Assembly (NCBI GenBank): GCA_001515955.1
Contig: LOES01000104.1
Span: 1-23,513 of the forward strand
DNA length: 23,513 nt
Source: Clostridia bacterium BRH_c25
Lineage (GTDB): Bacteria; Bacillota_A; Clostridia; Lutisporales; Lutisporaceae
Direction of reading: 5' to 3'
Below are positions 3,783-18,487 of this stretch, piece after piece; position 1 is the first letter of the stretch; every line of letters starts with the position of its first letter. The translations under genes and the position numbers were made by a program. The notes below the pieces were generated by a model. The model did not search any database and was not told where the DNA came from. It saw only the letters and a program-made list of their open reading frames with translations.

Positions 3783-4091
3783 TCCCCGGCCTATCCAATA
3801 ATGCCAATCCTCTACAGCTTCTCAGGTCTTCTTATCTTTATTCAAAGGCTGCAATTGAGCCAGCGGCACATTGAATCTACGTTCCTTCCATTGTATTTCT
3901 ACCATCATTTCATGGAGGCAATCATCTTGTTTAAAATACTGACCTAGCGCCCTTCCTTGCTTATCTCCAGGGATCCACTCGAGCTTCTGTACTTCTAACA
4001 AATCTGATAGAATTTCTGCATTCTCAGTGAACTCGTTCAGCCAAAGCTGAACATATGAAAGATTTTTTTGTTTTCCTGTTACTATATTAGG
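3783..4091 (-). pseudogene. Remnant of a gene with a CcbP-like C-terminal domain
   Basis: The minus-strand frame directly after the Mpv17-like stop is open for over 80 codons but has no plausible start codon or ribosome-binding site. It contains DDCLHEMMVEIQWKERR and VPLAQLQPL, then a TGA stop at 3824-3822. In the same frame after the stop it continues with EAVEDWHYWIGRG. As I recall the family, HEMFVEIQW, VPLSQL and EAIEDWHYW are hallmarks of CcbP-type calcium-binding proteins (Pfam CcbP). The TGA sits where the family often has Arg, so a CGA-to-TGA change is likely. The missing start and the internal stop together point to a decayed gene. The part before DDCLHEM is not recognised. Confidence 0.6.
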
Positions 4092-4755
4092 TTACAGATA
4101 GCGACTGAGCAGGCTTTCCTTTTTTCGCTATTGCCAGCAAAAAGCCAAGAGCTATAGACAAAAACGCCGAAATAAGAACTCTATACTGATATGGCAACAA
4201 AAACACTATTGTATGAGCCGGTATCCAGAAGAATGGACAGGTTTTGAGCCAACTAAATTCTACTAAAGAGTGCCAATCGTTTTTATCAACTAGTTCGCCT
4301 ATTGTTACTTTTCCGCCATTCTTTTCATGCTTAGCATCTATATACATATCAGTAAACCTGTGAAACGCCATCATCATCGGTCCAAATGTAAGATTCATCA
4401 CTGTACTTCCGAAAAAAGCCTGTGCTAAATTTGAACCTTTAAAAGGCAACCTGGCAGATTCTTGTGCAGATGCTGCGCCACCCATATATACTGTAAAAAC
4501 AAGGGTAACCATAATACCTATTATACCCCATACGACAGCTCTGTAAAAAAGACCTTTAGGAATGACATAATCACCCTTTAGTATTCTTATTCCTAGTAAA
4601 TCACCCATCGTTGCAAGTATAGCAAACTTAACGAATCCTCCTGCATAGGGATGCGCATCGGTAACAGCAATAAATGCTGAACGAAGACCTGGTACTATTA
4701 GAATAACAACCCAAACCAGCAGGCCTGTTGCCCAATATATATCTCCTCTTTTCAA
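4087..4755 (-). CDS. Mpv17/PMP22-like membrane protein
   Basis: A 222-residue polytopic membrane protein with about five hydrophobic segments. The C-terminal part (SWLKTCPFFWIPAHTIVFLL, then YRVLISAFLSIALGFLLAI) resembles the Mpv17/PMP22 signature, in which an aromatic-Pro-Gln/His segment is followed by R-L-x-x-S. GDLLGIRILKGDY near residue 50 would fit the family's early G-D segment. It starts at TTG (4755) with AAAGGAG 9 nt upstream, just after the butyrate kinase stop. It is the last intact gene of the ptb-ior-buk operon. Bacterial members have no well-established function; a pore or export role for acid products would fit the context but is speculation. Confidence 0.62.
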   Translation of the reverse strand: MKRGDIYWATGLLVWVVILIVPGLRSAFIAVTDAHPYAGGFVKFAILATMGDLLGIRILKGDYVIPKGLFYRAVVWGIIGIMVTLVFTVYMGGAASAQESARLPFKGSNLAQAFFGSTVMNLTFGPMMMAFHRFTDMYIDAKHEKNGGKVTIGELVDKNDWHSLVEFSWLKTCPFFWIPAHTIVFLLPYQYRVLISAFLSIALGFLLAIAKKGKPAQSLSVT

Positions 4756-5870: not shown

Positions 5871-6707
5871 CTATATTTTTTCTGACAGCTTCTCCATCAT
5901 TTGCGCAGTAGAGCTTAATTCTTCCAGTGATGCTGCAATCTCTTGCAATGCGGAAGCTTGTTGCTGGTATATCTGGTTAGATTTGTTCACGTTATCTGCA
6001 ATACTTTCTATTGATGATCTCACATTTTTTAGGAGATCATCAATTTTCTTGACGGACTCTGTAGTTGATGTAGATAATTTTCGTATTTCTTTTGCTACTA
6101 TATTAAATCCTTTTCCTGATTCGCCAACTCTTGCCGCCTCAATAGCGGCATTTAATCCTAATAGATTTGTTTGTGAGGAAATGCCCTTTACAAACTCAAT
6201 TATCATGTCTGTTTCTTCTGTGAGTTTACTTGTTTGTTTCATATTATTTGCTATATCCATGTTCATATTTGCCAGGTTATTAACGTCCAAAGCCAGTGAA
6301 TTGATAGCATCGGTTATTTGTCCTGCAGAATCTGACAGATGCTGTGACATATCAAGTACACTATTTTTTTTTGCAAGGCTTTTCCCCACAAGTATGACAC
6401 TCTCCGCATTATCATCTTTTCCTTTTACGGGTATGGCATATGATTTGAACGGTATTCCAAAAATCTCTTTGGGTACGGTCTTTATTATAACCTTTCCAGT
6501 GTTTATTGCCTCTCTTGCGGCTCCTCCTTCAGGGATAGCCTGACCTGCAACATTATTTAAAGGCAAATTGGAACTGTCATATACTTTAAGAAATTTTTCC
6601 CTGTCTGCTATTGAAAATGAGACTTCATCATCAAGAATGATTGTTAAAACAAGCGAAATAGTCTCAAAAGCATTTAGCACATCATTGCTTGAGATTGGTT
6701 TATTCAT
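5871..6707 (-). CDS. Soluble methyl-accepting chemotaxis-like signalling protein
   Basis: A 278-residue protein without any transmembrane helix or HAMP domain. Residues 1-115 form a PAS- or GAF-sized sensory region ([19 protein letters not shown] near its end). The rest is a coiled coil with the MCP hairpin tip near residues 176-208: [19 protein letters not shown], then [18 protein letters not shown]. The second leg of the hairpin is short, giving a truncated MCP domain. The ATG at 6707 is supported by GAAGGGAG; an upstream ATG lacks a site. It lies between iorB and buk. It may sense a pathway metabolite inside the cell and feed the chemotaxis system through CheA/CheW, or regulate locally. 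Confidence 0.85.
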
Positions 6708-6743
6708 AATATTAACTCCCTTCGATGGTATCATAATCAAGGG

Positions 6744-7319
6744 CTATACTCCATTTATACCTTCATTTAGTGCTTTAATATTCAATTCTACGAAAGCCGG
6801 TTTCACACATTTTTCTATAGCCGATTTCCAGTCCAAATCCTCTAGCTTCATAAGCTTTACCAGTGAACCCAATAAAACTATATTCATTACCTTTGAGTTC
6901 CCCAAGCTTAGCGCAATTTTCCCTGCATCTATCACTGTAGTCTTTGCTTTAGCCTTCACAATCTCAATAACATCTTCCGGATATTCCTCCGAACCTGCAA
7001 GTATTGTAGATGAAGGAATCTTATAATCATTTACAATCACATTTCCATCCGGTTTAATCTGATTAAGATATCTTAAAGCTTCCATAGCCTCGAAGGAAAC
7101 AAGTATATCCGCAGAGCCAGTTCCTATAATAGGGGCATTTACCTTAGTTCCATATCTTACTTGAGTAGTAACACTGCCTCCCCTTTGAGCCATTCCATGA
7201 ATCTCCGACATCTTGACATCATACCCCGAATCCACAAGGCATGTAGAGAGTATCTTGCTTGCCAGTATGGTACCCTGTCCGCCTACACCGCATAACATAA
7301 TGTTTTTTACATCCGACAT
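6744..7319 (-). CDS. iorB: Indolepyruvate:ferredoxin oxidoreductase, beta subunit
   Basis: The small subunit of IorAB (191 residues from ATG 7319), belonging to the pyruvate ferredoxin oxidoreductase gamma domain family. It opens with MLCGVGGQGTILASKIL, then SEIHGMAQRGGSVTTQVRYG and DILVSFEAMEALRYL, all characteristic of IorB. IorA stops one base upstream, so the two are translationally coupled. AGGTG at the iorA end acts as ribosome-binding site; an in-frame GTG at 7328 is the alternative start. With IorA it catalyses CoA-dependent oxidative decarboxylation of 2-oxo acids, classically aryl pyruvates, reducing ferredoxin. Confidence 0.95.
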   Translation of the reverse strand: MSDVKNIMLCGVGGQGTILASKILSTCLVDSGYDVKMSEIHGMAQRGGSVTTQVRYGTKVNAPIIGTGSADILVSFEAMEALRYLNQIKPDGNVIVNDYKIPSSTILAGSEEYPEDVIEIVKAKAKTTVIDAGKIALSLGNSKVMNIVLLGSLVKLMKLEDLDWKSAIEKCVKPAFVELNIKALNEGINGV

Positions 7320-7320
7320 A

Positions 7321-9099
7321 TTATTCACCTACCCTGCTAATAGCTTTTTTAGGACAAACTTGTACGCAAAGCTCACAAGCCACACACTGTGTTTTATCAA
7401 TACAAACCTTCTTTAAGTTCTTTTCGTATTTAAGAGCGGGGCAACCCGTCTTCATACACAGCTTACATCCAATACATTTATCTGCATTTATATCGCATAC
7501 ACCTTTATAATCACCAAAGTCATTCTTGTCTTTAAATGAAAGTTTCTTAAGTACACAGGGCCATTTTGTTATTATCACTACCGGTTCATCCTGAGAAAGC
7601 CCCCAGTCCATAATCTCTTTCATCTCTTCGATTTTTAATGGATTCACAGATTTTACTTTCTTAACACCCAGAGCTTTTACAACGCTTTCAATATCGGTTA
7701 TTTCTGTTGGGTCTCCCTGGAGCGTATATCCTGTCCCGGGATTTTCCTGATGTCCTGTCATACCTGTAATTCTGTTATCAAGAATACAAAATATCGCATT
7801 GCTCCTATTATATACTGCATCTAAGAGGCTGGTTATACCCGAGTGGAAGAATGTTGAATCTCCAAGTACCGCAACCACTCTCATACTCTCATTAAATTTA
7901 TTGAATACCTTTTGTGCTCCGTGGGCCATACTAAAACCTGCTCCCATACAAATACATGTATCCTTTGCATTTAGGGGTGATTGACTGCTCAATCCATAAC
8001 ATCCTATATCACTTGAAATCATAATGTTTTTCCTCTTTGCAAGCTCAAAGAAGAAACCCCTGTGAGGACATCCTGCACAAAGCACAGGAGGCCTTTTTGC
8101 AATTATTGACTCATCATACTCAATGACTTTGTTTTCTCTTCCTAATAATGCTTTTGCAATTATATCAGGATTAAGCTCTCCCATGATAGGTATCTTTTCC
8201 TTGCCAATACAGTTAATGCCTGCCGCTTTAATCTGTTCCTCCATAAACGGGTCAAGTTCCTCTATTACATAAAGAGTTTCTACTTGGCCTTCAAATTCCT
8301 TGATCTTCTTCATTGGCAGAGGATATGTAAAACCAAGCTTAAAATAAGATACATTGTCTTCAAAAATCTCTTTGGCATACTGATAGGATGCACCAGCCGC
8401 TATAATGCCTATCTTTCTATCATTAAACTCCACATAATTAAGCTCTGTATCATTTGAAAACTCCTCAAGCCTTTTTAATCTCTCCTCCACCTTAACGCGT
8501 AGTGCTTTGGCAACTGCCGGTACCGCATCATACTTTTGAAGGTTTCTTACATATGGCTTCTTTGGTACATTAGTTCTCTCTCCAATTTCCACCAATGATT
8601 TGCTGTGACATACTCTTGTAGTCATCCTCATCATAACCGGGGTATCATACTTCTCACTGATTTCCATAGCGTATTTTACCATGTCTTTTGCTTCCTGACT
8701 GTCACTTGGCTCTAACATAGGTATTTTTGAAAACTTTGCATAATTCCTGTTATCCTGTTCATTTTGTGAAGAATGAATACCTGGGTCATCAGCACTTATT
8801 AAAAGCATTCCCCCGCTAACACCTGTATAGGCAAAGGTAAAAAGCGGATCCGCTGCCACATTTAATCCCACATGCTTCATTGCAGCTATGGTTCTTGCAC
8901 CTGCTATAGATGCTCCAATCACAGACTCTAGAGCCACTTTTTCATTTGGAGCCCATTCAGCGATAATGTCCCCTTTATAGGCTGCAATGGTTTCAAGTAT
9001 CTCTGTACTTGGTGTACCGGGATAAGCAGCGGCATAAGCAACCCCTGCTTCATAAGCGCCCCGTGCCACTGCTTCATTTGCTGTAAGCAGTTCTTTCAT
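7321..9099 (-). CDS. iorA: Indolepyruvate:ferredoxin oxidoreductase, alpha subunit
   Basis: A 592-residue TPP- and iron-sulfur-containing large subunit. The N-terminal pyrimidine domain starts MKELLTANEAVARGAYEAGV and contains AAYPGTPSTEILE. The middle carries VLCAGCPHRGFFFELAKR, and the TPP site GDSTFFHSGITSLLDAVY is followed by DNRITGMTGHQENPGTG. The C-terminus has two 4Fe-4S ferredoxin motifs, CIGCKLCMKTGCP and CVACELCVQVCP. It oxidises a 2-oxo acid plus CoA to acyl-CoA, CO2 and reduced ferredoxin. The ATG at 9099 follows GGGAGGAATAGTA; earlier in-frame codons lie upstream of this site. It sits between ptb and iorB, so its acyl-CoA product probably feeds Ptb and Buk. Confidence 0.96.
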   Translation of the reverse strand: MKELLTANEAVARGAYEAGVAYAAAYPGTPSTEILETIAAYKGDIIAEWAPNEKVALESVIGASIAGARTIAAMKHVGLNVAADPLFTFAYTGVSGGMLLISADDPGIHSSQNEQDNRNYAKFSKIPMLEPSDSQEAKDMVKYAMEISEKYDTPVMMRMTTRVCHSKSLVEIGERTNVPKKPYVRNLQKYDAVPAVAKALRVKVEERLKRLEEFSNDTELNYVEFNDRKIGIIAAGASYQYAKEIFEDNVSYFKLGFTYPLPMKKIKEFEGQVETLYVIEELDPFMEEQIKAAGINCIGKEKIPIMGELNPDIIAKALLGRENKVIEYDESIIAKRPPVLCAGCPHRGFFFELAKRKNIMISSDIGCYGLSSQSPLNAKDTCICMGAGFSMAHGAQKVFNKFNESMRVVAVLGDSTFFHSGITSLLDAVYNRSNAIFCILDNRITGMTGHQENPGTGYTLQGDPTEITDIESVVKALGVKKVKSVNPLKIEEMKEIMDWGLSQDEPVVIITKWPCVLKKLSFKDKNDFGDYKGVCDINADKCIGCKLCMKTGCPALKYEKNLKKVCIDKTQCVACELCVQVCPKKAISRVGE

Positions 9100-9147
9100 T
9101 ACTATTCCTCCCATCATTACATAAATATATTTAAACAATTTTTCGTA

Positions 9148-10053
9148 TTATTTTACTGCTGATGCGGATAACACCAGTGATAAATACTTTTCCTCCGCTG
9201 AGGATCCTCTTGATGTCAATACAATAGGTACCTTAGCCCCCACAATAAAACCAGCCATTTTAGCTCCGGCAGAATAGACCAGGGACTTCCCCAAAATATT
9301 CCCTGCAGTAATATTAGGAACTATTAGTATATCTGCATCTTCTACAACGGGACTGTCATAGCCCTTGACTTTCGCAGATTCTCTGCTCATTGCCAAATCA
9401 TAAGAAATAGGGCCCTCCACAATGCAATTTGATATTTCCCCGCTCCGGTTCATCTTATTTAGTATGTCGGCGTCCACTGTTTCGGGCATTTTAGTGTTCA
9501 CATTTTCCACAGCAGCTAAAACTGCTACTTTAGGTTTTTCATAACCCATTGCTACTAAAGTATTGACAGCATTTTCTATTATTTGTTTTTTCTCCTCTAC
9601 ATTTGGGTACATCATCATTCCGCCGTCTGTAACTACAAGGAGCTTATGATAACTTGGCATTTCATGAATTACAAAATGGGACATGACATTTCCTGTTCTC
9701 AACCCTTTTTCTTTATTTACTACTGCCTTTAAAAGATCAGCAGTCTGTATTTTCCCCTTCATAATGAAATCTGCTGCGTTATCATGAATAAGCTTCACCG
9801 ACTTCTCAGCTGCATCAGCATCACTTTCTGCGTGGATTATTGCTTCATCATCTAAATCTTCATTTAAACTTTTAACTATAGATTTTATTTTAACTTTGTC
9901 TCCTATTAAGACTGGTTCTACAATGTTATCCTTTCTGGCTCTAAACACAGCCTCAAGGGTATGTTCGTCCTGTGCCGCAACCACAGCAACCCTTTTCTTT
10001 GCACCAGTATTTTGAACCTTCTGTATTAATTCTTTAAAACTACTAAAAACCAT
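9148..10053 (-). CDS. ptb: Phosphate butyryltransferase-like acyltransferase
   Basis: A 301-residue member of the phosphate acetyl/butyryltransferase family at full length. Recognisable segments are KKRVAVVAAQDEHTLEAV, ADFIMKGKIQTADLLKAV, LLVVTDGGMMMYPNVEEK, VEGPISYDLAMSRESA and DILIVPNITAGNILGKSLV. It exchanges CoA for phosphate on an acyl-CoA, giving the acyl phosphate used by Buk. AAGGGGGGAG lies 5 nt before the ATG. It is the second gene of the sigma-54 operon, next to iorA and away from buk. The acyl chain used in vivo is not determined by sequence; branched or aryl acyl groups would suit the ior genes. Confidence 0.95.
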   Translation of the reverse strand: MVFSSFKELIQKVQNTGAKKRVAVVAAQDEHTLEAVFRARKDNIVEPVLIGDKVKIKSIVKSLNEDLDDEAIIHAESDADAAEKSVKLIHDNAADFIMKGKIQTADLLKAVVNKEKGLRTGNVMSHFVIHEMPSYHKLLVVTDGGMMMYPNVEEKKQIIENAVNTLVAMGYEKPKVAVLAAVENVNTKMPETVDADILNKMNRSGEISNCIVEGPISYDLAMSRESAKVKGYDSPVVEDADILIVPNITAGNILGKSLVYSAGAKMAGFIVGAKVPIVLTSRGSSAEEKYLSLVLSASAVK

Positions 10054-10133: not shown

Positions 10134-10424
10134 TTAATCCTCCCAGTCAAAAGATACCCTTGAAACCAAATGCTTATCTGTCCTATTAACAAAAGCTTTG
10201 TGTAAATCATCATTTAAATAGGAATCTAAAGATTCTTTGTTTTCAAAATCCATCTCTACCATTACATCCATGTTAGAATCCCTAACTACACAATTGCTGT
10301 AAACATTTACGTTTAGAATATTGTCTAATTTCTTACCTATACTGAAAAAAACTTCTTTTGTATATTTTAGAACATCCTCATTATAGTAGTTAGGTTCAAA
10401 CTTAAAGAGAACATAATGCTTCAT
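10134..10424 (-). CDS. Dabb-type stress-responsive alpha/beta-barrel protein
   Basis: A 96-residue protein opening MKHYVLFKFEPNY and containing NCVVRDSNMDVMVEMDFENK and a DDLHKAF segment. This is the pattern of the dimeric alpha/beta-barrel (Dabb) family: a ferredoxin-like fold that dimerises and often binds small hydrophobic acids or acts as a minor enzyme. It is the first gene of the operon, with GAGGAGG upstream and a -24/-12 promoter 48 bp before the start. Its role is unknown; binding or isomerising a pathway intermediate is possible. Confidence 0.82.
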   Translation of the reverse strand: MKHYVLFKFEPNYYNEDVLKYTKEVFFSIGKKLDNILNVNVYSNCVVRDSNMDVMVEMDFENKESLDSYLNDDLHKAFVNRTDKHLVSRVSFDWED

Positions 10425-10471: not shown

Positions 10472-10488
10472 AGCAATTTTCATGCCAA
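10472..10488 (-). promoter_or_regulatory. Sigma-54 (-24/-12) promoter of the Dabb-ptb-ior-buk operon
   Basis: The minus strand reads TTGGCATGAAAATTGCT. It has GG and GC exactly 10 bp apart, matching TGGCAYG-N4-TTGCW. The start of transcription is expected near 10461, about 36 nt before the Dabb ATG. A sigma-54 activator gene is divergent and adjacent. Confidence 0.88.
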
Positions 10489-10647
10489 TATAAGAGATTT
10501 AAGATTATATATCGGTGTAATATAGCACTTGCATTGCTGTCCGCCCAATCTTTATTCCATCTTCAGTATATTTAGTAATTAGAGGAAAATGTATATTCAG
10601 AACAGGTAAGTATATTACTTTAAAACTATATAATCATAATTGAATAT

Positions 10648-10703
10648 ATAGTTATTAATTTCAAAAATGAAATTACAATTTTATTTTTGAAATTAATAAC
10701 TAT
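10648..10703. promoter_or_regulatory. Double-palindrome upstream activating sequence (UAS 1)
   Basis: A perfect 21-bp inverted repeat (10648-10668 against 10683-10703) encloses two 16-bp elements. These are ATTTCAAAAATGAAAT at 10658-10673 and ATTTTATTTTTGAAAT at 10678-10693, separated by 4 bp. The first is a perfect ATTTCA-N4-TGAAAT palindrome; the second has one mismatch. The layout equals UAS 2 at 15571-15606. It is centred about 195 bp upstream of the operon A -24/-12 promoter, and ends 9 bp before the -35 of the activator's own promoter. Confidence 0.8.
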
Positions 10704-10711
10704 TTTACATA

Positions 10712-10740
10712 TTGAAAATCAGGCATTTCTCTGTTAAAAT
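10712..10740 (+). promoter_or_regulatory. Sigma-A promoter of the sigma-54 activator gene
   Basis: TTGAAA (10712-10717), a 17-bp spacer, and TAAAAT (10735-10740). The gene starts at 10798 with AAAGAGG as ribosome-binding site. The closeness of UAS 1 suggests that the bound activator may repress its own gene. Confidence 0.65.
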
Positions 10741-10797
10741 TTAATCACTGATAGTAAGAAATATATAGTATGAATGTCAAAATAAAGAGGTTTTTAT

Positions 10798-12699
10798 ATG
10801 ATTAATAAGTTTGAAAAACAATTTTTGGCTATTGTTCCCGTAGAGGAAGAAAAAGAAAAAATATCTAATGATACTAATATAATGAACTATATTTATAAGG
10901 TTATTGTTTCGAACCCTAACGAGGAATTGCTTGCCGAAATAAATGAGATAATAAAAAACGTAAACATTTCCGGAATTATTACAAGAGGAAGCCTGGCCAA
11001 CTATTTGTTTCAAAACAATATCCCTCTTCCTATTTTTGATTTAAAATTTGATTTAACTGTCTTGATGAAGATTTTGGAAAAATGTGTGGTAACAGAATAT
11101 AAAAGAATATGCATCTTTGAAATAGGGTATGAAAGTCTCGGAGTCTCATCTCAAAATATTTTTTCACATAACCATATGGGAGATTATGAGTTTTACTACT
11201 ACAAAATGTTCAATAATATTGATGTTGAAACCACTATTGCTAAACTAGCAAGTAACAGGAGTATCGATGTACTGATCGGGGATGTTGAACCCACCCTCAT
11301 TGCAAATAAATACAATATACCGGTAGAGCATATCGCCATAAACAGCACCTCCTGGAAGACAACTATAAACCAGGCACGCCATTCAACTGATATTTCAATA
11401 AAAGAAAAATCGAAAAATAATTTCATTGAAATAATCACAAATATTATGTCAGAGGCAGTAATAATAATAGATGCTAATGGGATTATAAAGAGATACAATC
11501 TACAGGCTGAAAAACTATTCTTTAATGAAGGTAATTGCTTGAAAATTCAGGATGTATTTAATATAGAAATTGAAGCATTATTATCAACTCCTGCAAATTA
11601 CATAATAAAAATCCAGAAAAATAATTATGTCATAAATATGATTCCTGTTATATTGGAACAGGAAATGCTTTTTGCAATTATAATAAATAATATAAAATAT
11701 GTGCAAAATCTTGAAATGTCGATAAGAACACAAAATCAAATAAAAGGTTTAACTGCAAAAGTATATTTTAAAGATATTATTTGCAAAGATGCTAAAACTA
11801 AGTTAATCGTAAAAATAGCTAAGAAATATGCTAAGTCTAATAGTACTATTATTATATATGGTGAGTCCGGAACAGGAAAAGAAGTATTTGCATCAAGCAT
11901 TCATAATGAGAGTTTGCGTGCAAACGGTCCTTTTGTGGCCATTAATTGTGCATCTTTTAATGAAAATTTAATTCAAAGTGAGCTTTTTGGTTATGAAAAG
12001 GGTTCATTTACAGGTGCTTCAAGCAGTGGCAAAAAGGGGTTATTTGAAATAGCTCATAACGGTACTCTATTTTTGGATGAAATAGGTGAACTTCCATTAA
12101 ATCTTCAGGCAAAACTTCTAAGGGTAATACAGGAAAAGGAAATCATGAGAATTGGCGGAGATAAGATTATCCCCGTGGATGTACGAATTATCGCTGCCAC
12201 AAATAAAGATTTAAAGCAGATGGTTAAGAAAAACTTATTCCGCGAAGATTTGTATTATAGGCTGGCACTACTGGAAATTGACATTCCTCCTCTAAGAGAC
12301 AGGCCTAATGACATTATACCCTTATTTATAACATTTCTAACCGAAATTGCCGAACAGGAAAACAAATCAATATATTGGGATGATATATCCATTTTCAACC
12401 TATTATTGACCTATGATTGGCCGGGAAATGTTAGAGAGCTTAAAAACTTTTGCGAAAGGGTAGTAATATTATCCGATGAAAACAAACTAACTTACAGTTT
12501 TATAGTTAGTATGATCAGTCAAAAACACAATATAGAAAGTACACCAACATATACCACTGAAATAACCGATAACCTAAGGGAATTAGAAGTTAACTATGTA
12601 AATTTCCTTTTGCACAAATTCGGCAATGATAAGGAAAAGCTATGCAATTTTTTAAACATCAGCAAAACAACATTGTGGCGTAAGCTTAGTAATTCTTAA
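10798..12699 (+). CDS. Sigma-54-dependent activator, PrpR_N-PAS-AAA-Fis
   Basis: A 633-residue enhancer-binding protein. Residues about 10-195 form a PrpR_N-type sensor ([19 protein letters not shown] resembles the family's D-V-x-I-G-x-x-x-x-x-x-A segment). Residues about 205-305 are a PAS domain ([20 protein letters not shown]). The AAA+ domain spans about 325-560, with Walker A GESGTGKE (355-362), the sigma-54 contact loop GSFTGA (402-407, Ser replacing the usual Ala), Walker B FLDE (425-428), and FREDLYYRL with arginine fingers. [10 protein letters not shown] and a Fis-type helix-turn-helix (about 609-632, [10 protein letters not shown]) close the protein. It lies between two minus-strand operons that have -24/-12 promoters and a shared palindromic UAS, so it is the likely activator of both. 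The effector is unknown. Confidence 0.95.
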
Positions 12700-12708
12700 T
12701 AATATTAT

Positions 12709-12748
12709 AAAGAAAAGGCCGATGGTTTTCTCCACCGGCCTTTTCTTT
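12709..12748. terminator. Bidirectional terminator between the activator and kdgT-like genes
   Basis: Arms 12709-12725 and 12732-12748 (17 bp each, one mismatch) form a stem with GGCC core, a 6-nt loop, and A/T tracts on both sides. It serves both the plus-strand activator gene (stop 12699) and the minus-strand permease gene (stop 12759). Confidence 0.92.
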
Positions 12749-12758
12749 ATACATTTTA

Positions 12759-13727
12759 CTATGCTTCTATACTATTTTGTTCCTTGGGATATTTCGGGCT
12801 ACCGTATTTTTTTACAACATAACTCGTTATAACTGGAGCAATAATTGCTGTAACAATAACTGCTGTTGCCACAGCAGCCGTTGCTGTATCAACCTGTCCT
12901 GCTAATGAAGGATCGATCTGGGCAAGAATTGCAGGAACTGCAACCGCATTGCCTGCTGTCGTGCAAAGGGCAAAAGCTGCATAGCCTGGACGTCTTAATA
13001 TGAATCTGTCTGCCGGTAAAATAAACAATGCTGATAATATTACTACAGCAATTCCAAGCAGAATGCCTGTTGCACCACCTGTAACGATGTTTTTCAAGTT
13101 TAATCCGGTACCCAGGCAGAAAGCCAGGAACGGAAGTGTAAATAAAATACCAGGCTCTAAAAATTTTCTAATATCTTTATCTAAATTTCCAAGAATAATA
13201 CCTACAATCAATGGCCCAACGGATGCTAATAATGCAACTGCATCAAAGCTTGCAAGTCCTGCCAGGCCCATACCAATAAGAGTTAAAAACGGTCCATCAT
13301 TAATTCCTAATAACGATTGCGCTCCCAAGTCATTTTCATCACCAAACTGACTCATTAGACCAAGGTACATACCACCATTGCTATTTGTCACGGCTGCTAA
13401 AAGCATCAAAGGCGTCAACCCTATAACACCATTAGGCCCCCAAATTTTGGCTACAACCAACGTGGATACAAAGCCAGCTAGAAATTTCGCCGCCAGTAAT
13501 ACAAATCCTCTTTTTAAAGGCTCACCGATTTTTGTAATGGTAATTTGAGAGCCTACACATAACAAGCTGGCGCCTATAAAAGAGCCTGCTCCCGCCTTAA
13601 AGGTTGCTGTAGTCATTCCGCCAATGTTTAATAATTGTGGAAATAGCAAATTAATTACTGCTCCCAGAAACAGAGGAATAACCATCAATCCGCCTGGAAC
13701 CTTTTGTACAGTCTTTAATATTTTCAT
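12759..13727 (-). CDS. KdgT-family 2-keto-3-deoxygluconate-type permease
   Basis: A 322-residue membrane protein with about ten hydrophobic helices, matching the usual KdgT length. It starts KTVQKVPGGLMVIPLFLGA. Family-like segments are AVTNSNGGMYLGLMSQFGDE, LGINDGPFLTLIGMGLAGLA and ALCTTAGNAVAVPAILAQ. KdgT carries 2-keto-3-deoxygluconate by proton symport, and related proteins carry other hydroxy or oxo acids. AAGGGGTG precedes the ATG. It is the last gene of a three-gene operon with the UxaA-type subunits. The exact substrate should not be read from the name, because no kdgK, kdgA or uronate genes are in view. Confidence 0.9.
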   Translation of the reverse strand: MKILKTVQKVPGGLMVIPLFLGAVINLLFPQLLNIGGMTTATFKAGAGSFIGASLLCVGSQITITKIGEPLKRGFVLLAAKFLAGFVSTLVVAKIWGPNGVIGLTPLMLLAAVTNSNGGMYLGLMSQFGDENDLGAQSLLGINDGPFLTLIGMGLAGLASFDAVALLASVGPLIVGIILGNLDKDIRKFLEPGILFTLPFLAFCLGTGLNLKNIVTGGATGILLGIAVVILSALFILPADRFILRRPGYAAFALCTTAGNAVAVPAILAQIDPSLAGQVDTATAAVATAVIVTAIIAPVITSYVVKKYGSPKYPKEQNSIEA

Positions 13728-13751
13728 TTATTCTACACCCCTTTTAGTTTT

Positions 13752-14912
13752 TTAAGCATAACTATTAAATTGGTTAATCGCCATATCTGAAATTTCATTA
13801 TCTTCTGCCTTAACATTCTTGCCGTTACATACCTGAACTATATAACTTAAAAGCTCCTCCCCAAGCTCTTCAACAGATTTAGCTCCTGTAACACTATCAC
13901 TTGTATCGAAATCTATCATATCATTTAGTCGAACAGCTGTATCATGGTTTCCGGTAATTTTTACAACTGGGGCTATAGCATTTCCTACAGGAGTGCCCAT
14001 ACCTGTTGTAAAAGCTACGATTTGAGCGCCTCCGGCTATTAAAGATACTACAGATGCAACATCATAGGCAGTCCCGTCCATAAATACCAAACCCTTTTTG
14101 TCAATCATCTGTCCATATTCATATACTCCACTGAATGGTTTTGTACCGCTTTTATGAACACATCCCAATGATTTTTCTTCCAGAGTTGTTATCCCGCTGG
14201 CCTTATTCCCGGGAGAAGGATTTGTATTTCTAATATCTTCTCCCATATCTGCAAACATCTTTTCATATTTTAATACGGTATCACACAGTTTTTGTCCAAT
14301 TTCAGGAGTTAGAGCACGCTCTTTGAGTATATGCTCTGCTCCAATAGCTTCCGGTGTTTCACACAAAACAGATGTACCATTCAAGTCTACTAATCTATCC
14401 GAGGTATTTCCAAGTACAGCATTAGCAGAAAACCCTGATGTCGGATCAGAACCACCGCATTCCAATCCAAGAATAATATCAGATAAATCACATTCTTCCC
14501 TTACACATTTGCTTGCCTCTTCACTTAAAGCTTTAACTATCTCAACACCTTTTGCAACAGTTTTCTGAATGCCTCCCTCTTCTTGAATGCTGATGTAGTA
14601 TACGGGCTTATTAGTTTTCTTCCGTATAGCTTCCAGATACGTAGCTTCCCGTATCATTTCACATCCCAGTCCTACAATCAGAACACCGTATACATTACCA
14701 TTCGCAATCAGCCCCGATAAAATATTCAGGGTAACTGCAGTATCCCTTGAATTTTGAGCACAACCGTTGGGATTGTATAAATATTGAATACCATCCACTT
14801 TGTTGGCAATCTTCTGGGCCACTCCTGCGGCACATATAACTCCCGGCATAATAACAACATGATTACGAATGCCTACATGCCCATCCGGACGTTTATAGCC
14901 ATTGAATTTCAT
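13752..14912 (-). CDS. UxaA-family dehydratase, large subunit
   Basis: A 386-residue C-terminal-type catalytic subunit of the altronate/galactarate dehydratase family. It begins FNGYKRPDGHVGIRNHVVIM and contains NPNGCAQNSRDTAVTLN, LGLECGGSDPTSGFSANAV and GAQIVAFTTGMGTPVGNAI, all typical of UxaA/GarD/SuyB proteins. It is an iron-dependent lyase that removes water, or sulfite in SuyB, from a hydroxy acid to give a 2-oxo acid. The start overlaps the SAF subunit stop by one base (TAATG), and GGGAGG lies inside the upstream gene. UxaA itself is usually one fused chain; here the SAF domain is a separate gene as in SuyA/SuyB. The substrate is undetermined. Confidence 0.9.
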   Translation of the reverse strand: MKFNGYKRPDGHVGIRNHVVIMPGVICAAGVAQKIANKVDGIQYLYNPNGCAQNSRDTAVTLNILSGLIANGNVYGVLIVGLGCEMIREATYLEAIRKKTNKPVYYISIQEEGGIQKTVAKGVEIVKALSEEASKCVREECDLSDIILGLECGGSDPTSGFSANAVLGNTSDRLVDLNGTSVLCETPEAIGAEHILKERALTPEIGQKLCDTVLKYEKMFADMGEDIRNTNPSPGNKASGITTLEEKSLGCVHKSGTKPFSGVYEYGQMIDKKGLVFMDGTAYDVASVVSLIAGGAQIVAFTTGMGTPVGNAIAPVVKITGNHDTAVRLNDMIDFDTSDSVTGAKSVEELGEELLSYIVQVCNGKNVKAEDNEISDMAINQFNSYA

Positions 14913-15196
14913 TACTCAACCTCCCTCAATTTTTTGCTGTCCAAATTATTTTCATGCACATGCTCACCTGCTTTAATATCATTTGTCGCATAACCTATTA
15001 TTTCACCATACTTTAAAACTGCATCACCCTTCTTAATATCTACAATAGCAACCTTATGATTAACAGGGATATTGAAAACCGCCTTAACTATCGATGTTTT
15101 GCCATTCAAAACAAATGTAATTTCATCGCCACATGATATTGGCTTGGTTACTGTTACAACCATATCATTGTCATTTAGCAGAACTGCATTAACCAT
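14912..15196 (-). CDS. UxaA-family dehydratase, small SAF-domain subunit
   Basis: A 94-residue SAF-domain protein, the N-terminal-type partner of the large dehydratase. It contains MVVTVTKPISCGDEITF, then VNHKVAIVDIKKGDAVLKYG and IGYATNDIKAGEHVHENNL, the usual pattern of the small UxaA/SuyA subunit. GGGGGG lies 6 nt before the ATG. It is the first gene of operon B and is translationally coupled to the large subunit. A -24/-12 promoter lies 57 bp upstream. Confidence 0.92.
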   Translation of the reverse strand: MVNAVLLNDNDMVVTVTKPISCGDEITFVLNGKTSIVKAVFNIPVNHKVAIVDIKKGDAVLKYGEIIGYATNDIKAGEHVHENNLDSKKLREVE

Positions 15197-15252
15197 TTCA
15201 TTCCCCCCTTCCCATTTAAAATTGTTAACAATAAACTTCTAATAATAAAACA

Positions 15253-15268
15253 AGCAAGTGTTGTGCCA
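15253..15268 (-). promoter_or_regulatory. Sigma-54 (-24/-12) promoter of the UxaA-KdgT operon
   Basis: The minus strand reads TGGCACAACACTTGCT, with GG and GC 10 bp apart, close to the consensus TGGCACG-N4-TTGCW. Transcription should start near 15242, about 45 nt before the small-subunit ATG. UAS 2 lies about 330 bp upstream. Confidence 0.88.
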
Positions 15269-15357
15269 TATTAATTTATTTTATTGCTAATTCTATAAAT
15301 CGAAAAACTTTTCTTACTATTCTGCAAAATATAAATTATACACCAGTTTACAAGTTC

Positions 15358-15564
15358 TTAAGCAGTATAGCCTAATTCCAGGAAGCAATCAACAGCATTC
15401 CTAACAGCAAAATAAATTTTATTGTTTTCGAAGCGTTTTATGAAAACATCAAAAATTAATTTTGGGGTCAATTGTTGGTGTTTACCAGCCAAAGCTGCAG
15501 ATTGAAACATTCTACCATAAACCGCTGAAACTGGAATCTGGATGCCACAAATCGATGTTGCCAA
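15358..15564 (-). other. Unrecognised 68-codon open frame, possibly a gene remnant
   Basis: An open frame beginning at TTG without a ribosome-binding site encodes a peptide ending IYFAVRNAVDCFLELGYTA. I do not recognise it. It lies between UAS 2 and the -24/-12 promoter of operon B, where a translated gene is not expected. It could be a fragment of a decayed or inserted gene, or simply open by chance. Apart from this frame, the promoter and the UAS, I see nothing in the 15197-15667 gap. Confidence 0.25.
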
Positions 15565-15570
15565 AAACAG

Positions 15571-15606
15571 ATTTCACTAATGAAATTTACATTTCATTAG
15601 TGAAAT
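15571..15606. promoter_or_regulatory. Double-palindrome upstream activating sequence (UAS 2)
   Basis: ATTTCACTAATGAAAT (15571-15586), a 4-bp gap, then ATTTCATTAGTGAAAT (15591-15606). The two 16-bp arms are perfect inverted copies, and each is itself an ATTTCA-N4-TGAAAT palindrome. Centre-to-centre spacing is 20 bp, two helical turns, identical to UAS 1. This fits two dimers of a Fis-type activator bound on one face of the helix. Confidence 0.82.
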
Positions 15607-15667: not shown

Positions 15668-17170
15668 TTAAATGCAAAGTGAATTGACATTATCTGCCGG
15701 TTCTTGAGCATTCCTAATAAAAAAAGACATGATTTTATTTTCACCTATATCATCAAGGGGATAACTGTCTATCACGCTGCCTTTTTCAAAATGTAAAACA
15801 TGTGTGCAGCTTCCGAGTATGAGTTCAAGGTCATGGGAAATGATAAATAATGTTTTTCCCATCTGCTGAAGCTGTTTCAGACTATCGGATACTTCTCTCA
15901 TATGACGTAAATCAAGTCCGCTAGTTGGTTCATCGAATAATATGATTTCTTTTTCTGAGGCAACGGCGCTTGCTATTGCCACCCGCTGTTTTTGCCCCCC
16001 CGATAATGACATCGGATGCAGATCCTTCATTGGTAAAAGATCAAGACTGCTCAAAATACTTTCCGCCTTTGCCGTGTCAGCTTCTCCCATACTTAATAAA
16101 ATTTCGTCAAGTACACTTTCAGTAAACAGCTGATGATTGACATCCTGCATGACCATGTAGCATCGCCTCAAGCGGTCCCTTCTCTTGCATATCTCTCCAC
16201 AAAGGTCCAGAGTGCCTTTGCAGCTCTTTTCCAACCCGCAGAGGCATCTGGCAAAGGTTGATTTTCCGGCTCCGTTGTGTCCGATAACAGCAACGATATT
16301 GCCTTTTGGCACTGTCAGCAAATCTATCTTAATTGCAGGAGTTATATTCTTATAAGAAAACACAAAATTAGACAGATACACATCTTCCCATCTCTGAGCG
16401 ACATTTTTTTTGTCTCTTGTCAGGCTTTCCAAAGAAAGCGGTCTAAGTCCCATGCTTGAAAGCTCTGCTAAATTCATCATTTTCATCTGTTTGGCGGTAA
16501 ATTCCTTTTCTATCCTGCCGCTTTTCATGTATAAAACACGATCGACAAGCTCACGCAGAAAATATAGTCGGTGTTCCGCAATAATGATGGTTTTGCCTTT
16601 GCTTTTCCACAGCTCGATGAGCTTTCGCAGATCCTCAATCGCTGCTATATCCAGATTGGAGGAAGGCTCGTCAAACACAAAAATGTCAGGATGGCAGGTT
16701 GAAACTGAAGCACAGGCGATTTTCTGCTTTTCACCGCCGGACAATTGAAAAATACTTCTGTCCATCAACATATCAATTTTAAAATCAGAAACCGTCTCTG
16801 CTATCCGCCTGTTTATTTCTTCTGCGGGCAAGCCCCTGTTCTCGCAGCCAAATGCAAGCTCACTTGTGGTATCCACATTAAAAAATTGTGAGCGCGGGTT
16901 TTGAAAAACAGAGCCTACCATTTTCGCCGTCTCATAGATCTGTAATTTATGGATTGCTTGGTCGTTAATCAATATCTGGCCCGTAAGAGAGCCTTCATAA
17001 TAGTTTGGTATCAATCCGTTAATCAGTCGTGTTAAAGTAGTTTTCCCACAGCCGGATTCCCCGCATAGCAGGACAACCTCACCCTGCCGAATGGTTAAGT
17101 TTATATTGTGCAGCCCGTTTTCTTTCTGACCCTGTGAATATGAAAAAGAGACGTTCTTTAGTTCAATCAT
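15668..17170 (-). CDS. ECF-type double ATPase (fused EcfA-EcfA')
   Basis: A 500-residue protein with two ABC ATPase domains in one chain. Domain 1 has GESGCGKTT (37-45), LSGGEKQK (143-150) and FDEPSSNLD (166-174). Domain 2 has GHNGAGKST (297-305), LSGGQKQR (389-396) and FDEPTSGLD (412-420). Both sets look intact. Separate EcfA1 and EcfA2 proteins are more common; fused forms accompany substrate-specific ECF systems. It powers uptake with the adjacent EcfT and MptD-type S component. AGGAGGAG precedes the ATG. It is the last gene of a five-gene operon, with no clear terminator after it. Confidence 0.93.
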   Translation of the reverse strand: MIELKNVSFSYSQGQKENGLHNINLTIRQGEVVLLCGESGCGKTTLTRLINGLIPNYYEGSLTGQILINDQAIHKLQIYETAKMVGSVFQNPRSQFFNVDTTSELAFGCENRGLPAEEINRRIAETVSDFKIDMLMDRSIFQLSGGEKQKIACASVSTCHPDIFVFDEPSSNLDIAAIEDLRKLIELWKSKGKTIIIAEHRLYFLRELVDRVLYMKSGRIEKEFTAKQMKMMNLAELSSMGLRPLSLESLTRDKKNVAQRWEDVYLSNFVFSYKNITPAIKIDLLTVPKGNIVAVIGHNGAGKSTFARCLCGLEKSCKGTLDLCGEICKRRDRLRRCYMVMQDVNHQLFTESVLDEILLSMGEADTAKAESILSSLDLLPMKDLHPMSLSGGQKQRVAIASAVASEKEIILFDEPTSGLDLRHMREVSDSLKQLQQMGKTLFIISHDLELILGSCTHVLHFEKGSVIDSYPLDDIGENKIMSFFIRNAQEPADNVNSLCI

Positions 17171-17189
17171 TCGTATTAGCTCCTCCTTT

Positions 17190-17918
17190 TCAAAATAATA
17201 AAAAACCTATGAACGCAGCAATAGCAACGATTGACAATATGATATCGTGAATGCCAAATCCTATTTTGCATATGTTCGTTCTCTTAACAGGACTGCCTAA
17301 GCCACGCGTTAATGCAGCGGCCGAAAGCTCTTCTCCTATTTTAACGGTTGACATCATCATCGGGACTAAGCGGTATTCAAGCATAGCCATCGGATTTTTG
17401 AAAAATACCGAAAATCCGATACCTCTCATACGCATTGCATCACCAATTGCCCTTGATTCTTCGCCCACTGTCGGAAAAAACCTAAACATAACCGCAAAAG
17501 GAATAACAATGCTTTGAGGAACATGCATCCGCTCCATTGACGCAATAAATTCACTTACGGTAGTGGTTGAAACCAAATAATACCCGATTGCCAGCCCCGG
17601 AATAAACCGCGTAAATATCCCCGACAGAGCCACAATCAAAAACCCTATAAGTCCGCTTGTCAGCGGTATAAGGTAAAGCTCCATCAAATATGCCGCTGCA
17701 TAAATCAATGCAAATTTTATCGTTGTTTTGAACCTGCCAATCATCAGAAACAGAAGCAGCGGCAACAGCGCCAAGGCCGGCCTTATCACATTCATCACAC
17801 CGCCTGCGCTTCCGGCAATCAAAATTGTACTGCCAATAAACACGAGCAGAATTTTTGTTCTCGGATCAAGCACAAAGGCAGAAGGTGTTCTCTTACTTTG
17901 CATTAATTCTTTTTGCAT
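17190..17918 (-). CDS. ECF transporter transmembrane component (EcfT)
   Basis: A 242-residue membrane protein of the CbiQ/EcfT family. Hydrophobic helices from about residue 25 to 125 are followed by the cytoplasmic coupling region with SEFIASMERMHVPQSIVIPF and the conserved AMRMRGIG (residues about 163-170), whose A-R-G type motif contacts the ATPases. A second similar motif, AALTRGLGSP, follows near residue 202. The ATG shares one base with the stop of the S component (TGATG), so translation is coupled. It forms a module with the S component and the double ATPase. Confidence 0.92.
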   Translation of the reverse strand: MQKELMQSKRTPSAFVLDPRTKILLVFIGSTILIAGSAGGVMNVIRPALALLPLLLFLMIGRFKTTIKFALIYAAAYLMELYLIPLTSGLIGFLIVALSGIFTRFIPGLAIGYYLVSTTTVSEFIASMERMHVPQSIVIPFAVMFRFFPTVGEESRAIGDAMRMRGIGFSVFFKNPMAMLEYRLVPMMMSTVKIGEELSAAALTRGLGSPVKRTNICKIGFGIHDIILSIVAIAAFIGFLLF

Positions 17919-18472
17919 CAGGCCATGCCTGCCTTTTTAAAGTGCTTTTTTAAAACCGATTTGCCGATAAGCGCCCCGCAAAATCCGCCTAAAATTGTAA
18001 GTGCGGTCAATGCAAAGAACGACCAGGTCGGCGTATAGGACATAAGTGCATCAACATATTCCTGCCCATAGGTCGGCACCATAGCAGCAAAGTAGCTGTC
18101 CCTCATAAAGTACAGCGGCAGCATCATACCCATGAGCCAAACGCTAAAAACAGTATAGGCAGTAATAGTTTTTTTAGAGCTTTGATAATTTCCGGATTTT
18201 AAAATAAAATCAGCAATCAAACCAAAACCCAAACCTGTAAAAATTGGTGGCCAGGACATCCCGGTGATAAGCATCAAAATGCCGCAAATAAGCCCGGTTA
18301 TTGTAACCATCCCAAACCTTTTTATCTTCGTCAGGTAGAGCATAAATGGAATGCCCGCCACAAAAGGGCAGATGAACGGAATAAGCAGCATAAATATAGG
18401 AATGTATCCCAGCATACCGCATGCAAAGAAAACCACGAAATAAATCGCTGTAAAAACGCCGACCGTAATCAA
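17918..18472 (-). CDS. MptD-type ECF transporter S component
   Basis: A 184-residue, strongly hydrophobic protein with about five or six helices. The N-terminus VGVFTAIYFVVFFACGMLG and a conserved middle section (GLICGILMLITGMSWPP) match the MptD/Trep_Strep family of putative S components. It should bind the substrate and hand it to EcfT/EcfA. No ATG is available: the frame follows the upstream gene's stop, and the best start is TTG at 18472 with AGGT 8 nt before it. Substrates of MptD proteins are not established; the neighbours here suggest an iron- or metallophore-related ligand. Confidence 0.82.
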   Translation of the reverse strand: MITVGVFTAIYFVVFFACGMLGYIPIFMLLIPFICPFVAGIPFMLYLTKIKRFGMVTITGLICGILMLITGMSWPPIFTGLGFGLIADFILKSGNYQSSKKTITAYTVFSVWLMGMMLPLYFMRDSYFAAMVPTYGQEYVDALMSYTPTWSFFALTALTILGGFCGALIGKSVLKKHFKKAGMA

Positions 18473-18487
18473 GTCTTTTACCTGTAA

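What the first reader, a model, noticed from the sequence alone, without database searches (positions are those of the whole stretch)
10472..15606. One sigma-54 regulon with a shared double-palindrome enhancer flanking its activator gene
Two separate minus-strand operons each carry a well-formed -24/-12 promoter (10472-10488 and 15253-15268). Upstream of each is the same 16-4-16 layout of ATTTCA-N4-TGAAAT elements with 20-bp centre spacing (10658-10693 and 15571-15606). The PrpR_N-type activator gene lies between them. The central N4 bases differ between the two sites while the flanks are kept, which is what selection for protein binding looks like. I know of no described activator with this site.
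Basis: partly seen in the sequence, partly recalled or inferred. Interest (0 to 1): 0.82.

Follow-up and report, generated by a model that had tools for sequence, protein, structure and literature searches.

The report
Conserved twin switch site, one activator
Two neighbouring operons of an uncultured clostridium each carry the same paired DNA control site, and in relatives the site keeps company with one branch of activator genes, which makes it a credible gene switch of an ordinary kind with a DNA address not found in the literature searched.

Summary
Both minus-strand operons have a -24/-12 promoter and, upstream, two ATTTCA-N4-TGAAAT units with centres 20 bp apart (one mismatch at site A, none at site B); 100 shuffled windows give none. 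In relatives the units follow the activator: at all five other loci of its branch that I could read (EBPs 40-80% identical) two units stand upstream of a -24/-12 box, 20 bp apart in four and 32 bp apart in the fifth. A unit with at most one mismatch is within 400 bp of 7 of 7 promoters of this branch and 0 of 12 others. In 393 genomes the 20-bp pair stands near a -24/-12 box only in the three that carry the branch. So the site is very probably this activator's enhancer. The two-operon regulon is less secure: relatives keep the site at dabb or uxaA, but ptb-iorAB-buk lies under it only here. Site B is also a perfect hairpin behind an ABC gene. Sigma-54 control of kdgT-uxaA and of ior-buk operons is already known in Clostridiales, under separate activators with a TGT/ACA site. 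New member of a known kind; no binding data.

The parts
10798..12699 (+). sigma-54 activator (EBP), 633 aa: PrpR_N sensor (42-200), AAA+ with GSFTGA loop, C-terminal Fis-type HTH (593-630)
   Evidence: HTH_8 below Pfam's cut-off in this protein (17.0 vs 22), above it in close relatives P0004 and P0006
10658..10693 (.). site A: pair of 16-bp palindromes, centres 20 bp apart (1 mismatch); far end 206 bp upstream of the -24 box of the dabb operon, and also upstream of the activator gene
15571..15606 (.). site B: exact pair, far end 338 bp upstream of the -24 box of the uxaA-kdgT operon; also a perfect 16-bp hairpin
10473..10487 (-). -24/-12 promoter of the dabb operon, TGGCATGAAAATTGC
   Evidence: dabb also has one in G001, G002, G003
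15254..15268 (-). -24/-12 promoter of the uxaA-kdgT operon, TGGCACAACACTTGC
10712..10740 (+). probable housekeeping promoter of the activator gene, TTGAAA-17-TAAAAT, kept in G001 and G002
10134..10424 (-). Dabb-domain protein, first gene of operon A
   Evidence: PF07876
9148..10053 (-). phosphate butyryltransferase-like phosphotransacylase (ptb)
   Evidence: below the ptb equivalog cut-off (344.6 vs 410.5)
7321..9138 (-). indolepyruvate:ferredoxin oxidoreductase alpha (iorA)
   Evidence: TIGR03336 above cut-off
6744..7328 (-). indolepyruvate oxidoreductase beta (iorB)
   Evidence: NF005325 above cut-off
5871..6740 (-). MCP-signalling-domain protein
   Evidence: PF00015
4770..5852 (-). butyrate kinase (buk)
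   Evidence: TIGR02707 above cut-off
4087..4755 (-). hydrophobic protein without Pfam match, last gene of operon A
14912..15196 (-). SAF-domain subunit of an altronate/galactarate dehydratase-family enzyme (uxaA1)
13752..14912 (-). large subunit of the same enzyme (uxaA2)
12759..13727 (-). KdgT-family permease
   Evidence: PF03812; below the kdgT equivalog cut-off (223.1 vs 453.8)
12706..12751 (-). terminator-like hairpin between the convergent ends of kdgT and the activator gene

Best explanation
The paired palindrome is the upstream activating site of the PrpR_N-type sigma-54 activator encoded between the operons. Inferred mechanism: an activator dimer binds each 16-bp ATTTCA-N4-TGAAAT unit through its Fis-type HTH; two dimers about two helical turns apart (three in G609) seed the AAA+ hexamer on one face of the DNA; on ligand binding by the PrpR_N domain the hexamer loops to RNA polymerase-sigma54 at the -24/-12 box and opens it by ATP hydrolysis. 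Site A drives dabb-ptb-iorA-iorB-mcp-buk and the last gene, site B drives uxaA1-uxaA2-kdgT, and site A may also tune the activator's own promoter. The likely job is uptake and dehydration of a hydroxy acid to a 2-oxo acid, oxidation of that to an acyl-CoA and ATP formation through an acyl phosphate. Shown: motif, promoters, conservation with the activator branch. Inferred: binding, activation, ligand, pathway, and that ptb to buk are read from the dabb promoter.
For: Pair present twice here, 0 in 100 shuffles. Other loci of the branch: G001 (EBP 73%, pair at 4 mismatches), G002 (80%, 0), G003 (67%, 2), G047 (42%, 3), far end of the pair 95-184 bp upstream of a -24/-12 box; G609 (40%), two units at 1 and 2 mismatches, 32 bp apart, 147 and 115 bp upstream of one. 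Without any spacing rule, a unit at 0-1 mismatch lies within 400 bp upstream of 7 of 7 promoters of this branch and 0 of 12 others, whose best is 2-4. In 393 genomes of the order of G003, 3 have the EBP at E below 1e-130 and all 3 have the 20-bp pair at up to 3 mismatches; 8 of the other 390 have one, all at exactly 3 mismatches, and none of these 8 has a -24/-12 box at up to 1 mismatch in the 3 kb around; the reversed control pattern gives 6 hits in 5 genomes. The EBPs of these loci, with 21 database proteins, form one side of a 100/100 branch against the other EBPs. In 24 counted half-sites TTT-C-A is nearly fixed and the core free.
Against: No binding or expression data. The motif was defined on the window, and of the five other loci three are close relatives. 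G609 lacks the 20-bp pair (best 7 mismatches in 19 kb) and its second unit has 2 mismatches, one of seven such units in that stretch. G001 fails the 3-mismatch pair search. The seven genomes with more distant EBPs (E 4e-107 to 8e-102) have no pair, as expected for another address but also untested. In one search only the 3 best candidates per genome were scored. The ptb-iorAB-buk operon of G003 has its own -24/-12 box and no unit under 4 mismatches; iorA loci of G001 and G002 show no pair and no -24/-12 box (the G001 contig starts about 300 bp before ptb; no ptb was found next to iorA in G002). G001's uxaA2 homologue (40%) has neither. The HTH of the window protein is below Pfam's cut-off. Site B is farther from its promoter (338 bp) than the 100-250 bp that Nie et al. 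give for most sites.
Confidence: 0.8

Rival explanations
1. Site B is the transcription terminator of the upstream ABC gene (15668-17170, same strand) and resembles site A by shared palindrome alone.
For: A perfect 16-bp stem with 4-nt loop 61 bp past the stop codon, called terminator-like with a CTGTTTTTGG tail; RNA fold -17.9 kcal/mol with tail.
Against: Only 3 G-C pairs and a poor T-tract; the same pair occurs at site A and in G001 and G002 between divergent genes; the whole-site hairpin is weak in G001, G003 and G047 (-3.2 to -9.5 kcal/mol on the two strands) whereas the two units are kept.
Confidence: 0.08
2. The pair is bound by a different regulator (for example a CRP/FNR-like or other palindrome-binding protein) that acts with or against the activator.
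For: Binding is not shown; single palindromes of this core occur elsewhere in relatives.
Against: The units track the activator branch and the pair is found once in each of G002, G003 and G047. Most of the single copies in G002 that I printed are cores of longer GAGGAAATTTC..GAAATTTCCTC-like hairpins, a different element.
Confidence: 0.1
3. Site A only autoregulates the activator gene and has nothing to do with the dabb promoter.
For: It lies just upstream of a conserved TTGAAA-17-TAAAAT promoter of the activator; in G003 a single unit stands before the activator gene.
Against: In G003 the pair is upstream of dabb, 5 kb from the activator gene's start; in G047 it is between the activator and uxaA1 and in G609 before the uxaA operon, over 7 kb from the activator.
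Confidence: 0.04

Closest known systems
XduR group (kdgT-uxaA regulon of Clostridiales, Nie et al. 2019, PMC6615313; C. difficile CD2869, PMC7438776)
   Same: Sigma-54 activator next to its target, -24/-12 promoter, kdgT and uxaA targets; sigL-dependent in C. difficile (passage of PMC7438776).
   Different: Its site is described as TGT and ACA 10-12 bp apart; neither window site has that within 400 bp upstream of the -24 box. Five other EBPs next to uxaA and/or kdgT, which I take as its kin without having fetched a named XduR, fall outside the branch and their promoters lack the unit.
ZypR group (tyrB-iorAB-butK, same papers)
   Same: Sigma-54 control of an ior-buk operon.
   Different: TGT/ACA-type site; separate activator; this operon has dabb and ptb and no tyrB.
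PrpR (propionate catabolism activator, TIGR02329)
   Same: PrpR_N sensor plus AAA+ plus HTH.
   Different: Below the PrpR equivalog cut-off (337.7 vs 499.2); different neighbours.
PrdR (proline reductase activator, NF041552)
   Same: Best-scoring NCBIfam model (400.7 bits).
   Different: Far below its cut-off of 795; published TGT/ACA-type site.

Membership tests
sigma-54 activators (bacterial enhancer-binding proteins) | AAA+ sigma-54 interaction domain | tested here: met
   PF00158 234.9 bits, cut-off 20.2
sigma-54 activators (bacterial enhancer-binding proteins) | GAFTGA loop or accepted variant | tested here: met
   GSFTGA here and in G003, GAFTGA in G001, G002, G047 and G609; GSFTGA named as a working variant by Nie et al.
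sigma-54 activators (bacterial enhancer-binding proteins) | Fis-type DNA-binding domain | tested here: inconclusive
   PF02954 17.0 bits against cut-off 22 in the window protein and 21.7 in P0020; 25.9 and 26.7 in P0004 and P0006
sigma-54 activators (bacterial enhancer-binding proteins) | binds an upstream site and activates a -24/-12 promoter | not testable with these tools
   sites and promoters present; binding not measured
XduR group | target operon kdgT-uxaA | tested here: met
   uxaA1-uxaA2-kdgT behind site B
XduR group | TGT-N10-12-ACA site | tested here: not met
   none in 400 bp upstream of either window promoter
XduR group | orthology of the activator | tested here: inconclusive
   other uxaA/kdgT-linked EBPs branch apart, but no named XduR protein was fetched
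ZypR group | TGT/ACA site in front of tyrB-iorAB-butK | tested here: not met
   no TGT-N10-12-ACA upstream of the dabb promoter; no tyrB among the operon's genes
PrpR equivalog (TIGR02329) | curated score cut-off | tested here: not met
   337.7 vs 499.2
intrinsic terminator (site B) | G+C-rich stem followed by a T run | tested here: inconclusive
   perfect stem with 3 G-C pairs, CTGTTTTTGG tail

The most novel reading that the evidence does not exclude
One branch of PrpR_N activators uses a twin ATTTCA-N4-TGAAAT address, distinct from the published TGT/ACA address of the activators that run the same kinds of operon. The address tolerates spacings of two or three helical turns (20 bp, 32 bp in G609). 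In this organism the branch has captured the ptb-iorAB-buk operon through dabb, so that one switch runs a whole route from hydroxy-acid uptake to substrate-level ATP formation. G003 and G047 hold activators of both kinds, a natural experiment in the change of enhancer specificity.
Probability: 0.35. Interest if true: 0.5.

Novelty: new member of a known kind. Interest (0 to 1): 0.4.

Why it matters
It adds an enhancer address with strong comparative support to the sigma-54 regulons of uncultured Clostridia, and gives sites that can be tested directly. Genomes with two related activators on different addresses (G003, G047) would let one ask how HTH changes rewrite an enhancer code, and G609 how spacing is relaxed by whole helical turns. 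It would not change the general picture of sigma-54 control.

Tried and rejected
The single palindrome looked abundant in G002 (42 forward and 45 reverse matches of ATTTCA-N4-TGAAAY against 1 and 1 in the control), which first spoke against a specific site. Of the 26 G002 loci looked at (two of them repeats of others) two held no ATTTCA-N4-TGAAAT match; most of the rest show cores of longer intergenic hairpins, and the only 20-bp pair in G002 is the one in front of dabb. I did not look at every G002 match.

A first tree of 23 EBPs put the five EBPs with the 20-bp pair on one branch (97/98). Adding G609 and 22 database proteins showed that this was too simple: G609 lies in the wider branch without the 20-bp pair, so the label 'pair' needs two changes. 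Looking at G609's promoter then showed two units at 32 bp, and I repeated the promoter test without a spacing rule.

Reading by eye the regions next to other EBPs I saw no motif common to them. G138 and G165 (near-identical, 35% EBP) have ATTTCA half-sites with a 3-bp core and the same [11 protein letters not shown] helix; a lead only (pair at 8 and 7 mismatches). TGT-N10-12-ACA counts did not discriminate: found in 2 of 6 promoters of this branch and 5 of 12 others; only the promoter next to G003's second EBP has two.

More EBPs with DNA: class of G003, 4 of 391 genomes at E<=1e-115, two new (G539, G609); G539's contig has the length of L004's and its matches equal L004's, so it adds nothing. 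Order of G770 with P0020, 0 of 394 (no positive control). Family of G002, 1 of 3. Family and order of G001 gave the same 22 genomes. The 50 proteins P0019-P0068 (42-60% identity) have DNA that my searches did not reach. Literature; one search was swamped by C/EBP papers and one search returned nothing. Nie et al.: abstract, Results parts 1 and 2 of 3, and passages seen; Table S3 and motif logos not seen. PMC7438776: passages only. Other papers: listings only.

In some searches the L004 row was anchored some 10-16 bp off its promoter, whose -12 box is not canonical; the G003 ptb row is not tied to an EBP; p values there are from single-base shuffles.
Full report
What is there. The window carries, on the minus strand, operon A (dabb 10134-10424, ptb-like 9148-10053, iorA, iorB, an MCP-domain protein, butyrate kinase, and a last gene ending at 4087) and operon B (uxaA1 14912-15196, uxaA2, kdgT ending at 12759), with a sigma-54 activator gene on the plus strand between them (10798-12699). 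Each operon has a -24/-12 box, the only two exact TGGCAY-N5-TTGC matches in the window. No listed terminator-like site on the minus strand falls in the 80-bp gap between dabb and ptb, so ptb to buk is probably read from the dabb promoter; this is inference.

The paired site. Sites A (10658-10693) and B (15571-15606) each hold two ATTTCA-N4-TGAAAT units with centres 20 bp apart; site A has one mismatch. Two matches at up to 3 mismatches in the window, none in 100 shuffles. Within each window site the two cores are reverse complements, as in G002; in G001, G003 and G047 they are not (3, 2 and 1 of 4 core bases). So a long hairpin is not what is kept; the units are.

Conservation. A scan of the genome-contig collection with the activator gave 24 loci. 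The three closest (L001 73%, L002 80%, L003 67%) lie in genomes G001, G002 and G003. In G001 and G002 the activator and dabb are divergent, as here, and the pair (4 and 0 mismatches) lies between them with a -24/-12 box in front of dabb. In G003 dabb-uxaA1-uxaA2-kdgT form one row of genes behind one pair (2 mismatches) and one -24/-12 box. G047, found by protein search (42%), has activator, then pair (3 mismatches, overlapping the end of the activator's open frame), then -24/-12, then uxaA1-uxaA2. G609, also found by protein search (40%), has no 20-bp pair (best 7 mismatches in 19 kb), but two units at 1 and 2 mismatches stand 32 bp apart, 147 and 115 bp upstream of the -24/-12 box of a row of genes that includes uxaA. 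Twenty and 32 bp are close to two and three turns of the helix. In the alignment of the dabb-activator intergenic region of window, G001 and G002 the first unit and the TTGAAA-17-TAAAAT box of the activator gene are among the longest kept blocks; the -24/-12 boxes were not brought into register there.

Genome-wide test. At up to 3 mismatches the 20-bp pair occurs once in G002, once in G003 and not in G001, whose pair has 4. In 393 genomes of the order of G003, 11 have it; G002, G003 and G047 are the three with an EBP at E below 1e-130, and only these three have a -24/-12 box at up to 1 mismatch in the 3 kb around. The other 8 are all at the 3-mismatch limit, about what the reversed control gives (6 hits in 5 genomes). 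The seven genomes with only more distant EBPs (E 4e-107 to 8e-102) have no pair. One search scored only three candidates per genome, so a missed EBP cannot be excluded.

Promoter test. Over 18 promoter regions the best pair match is 0-4 mismatches for 6 of 6 of the branch and 7-12 for 12 of 12 others. With G609 added and no spacing rule, a unit at 0-1 mismatch lies within 400 bp upstream of 7 of 7 promoters of the branch and 0 of 12 others, whose best unit has 2-4. In a tree of 45 EBPs the window, G001, G002, G003, G047, G609 and 21 database proteins are on one side of a 100/100 branch; the others, including those next to uxaA and/or kdgT in L004, L009, G008, G003 (second EBP) and G047 (second EBP), are on the other (loci).

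What is not conserved. Targets shift. dabb has the site in window, G001, G002 and G003; uxaA in window, G003, G047 and G609. In G002 dabb is followed by a 338-aa protein that looks like a D-2-hydroxyacid dehydrogenase (my reading, no family search) and a 273-aa protein, not by ptb. No uxaA2 was found in G002 and no iorA at E<=1e-100 in G047. G003's ptb-iorAB-buk operon has a -24/-12 box identical over 15 bases to the window's dabb promoter but no unit. So joint control of uxaA-kdgT and ior-buk by one activator rests on this window alone.

Function. Family matches say: KdgT-family permease, a dehydratase of the altronate/galactarate family split into SAF and large subunits, 2-oxoacid:ferredoxin oxidoreductase of the indolepyruvate type, phosphotransacylase, butyrate kinase. 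From general knowledge such enzymes would make a 2-oxo acid from a hydroxy acid, an acyl-CoA from that, and ATP through an acyl phosphate. The substrate is unknown; Nie et al. label kdgT-uxaA 'pectin degradation'.

What is known. Nie et al. 2019 reconstructed 39 EBP groups in 57 Clostridiales species; XduR (kdgT-uxaA) and ZypR (tyrB-iorAB-butK) are among those with TGT and ACA 10-12 bp apart; six further groups resemble one another and fifteen are called distinct, but their motifs are in figures and a supplement that I could not read. In C. difficile both operon types are listed as sigL-dependent with XduR and ZypR as their regulators (passages of PMC7438776). Hence the kind of system is known; the address and the grouping are new as far as the searches reach.

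Noticed in passing
G002 contigs (loci L045-L062): Some 40 single ATTTCA-N4-TGAAAT palindromes; most of those printed are cores of longer GAGGAAATTTC..GAAATTTCCTC-like intergenic hairpins, several next to AATTAAGAATTAAG repeats: a dispersed repeat or terminator type in that genome.
   Followed up: partly
L081 8030-8220, L082 6940-7130 (G138, G165): EBPs 35% identical with the same [11 protein letters not shown] helix have ATTTCA half-sites with a 3-bp core before their -24/-12 box.
   Followed up: partly
L119 1383-1544 (G609): Two units 32 bp apart, not 20, before the -24/-12 box of a uxaA-containing row of genes: the spacing is relaxed by about one helical turn.
   Followed up: partly
L086 17731-18131 (G003): A shortened ptb-like frame keeps a -24/-12 box identical to the window's dabb promoter but has no unit upstream.
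   Followed up: partly
L003 7905-7920: A single unit GTTTCAATTTTGAAAT stands upstream of the activator gene in G003, possible autoregulation.
   Followed up: partly
window 15668-22061: ABC protein with two ATPase domains, EcfT-like protein, small membrane protein and two ABC half-transporters in a row; not studied (names are my reading of the frames).
   Followed up: no
window 5871-6740: An MCP-domain protein sits inside the ior-buk operon.
   Followed up: no
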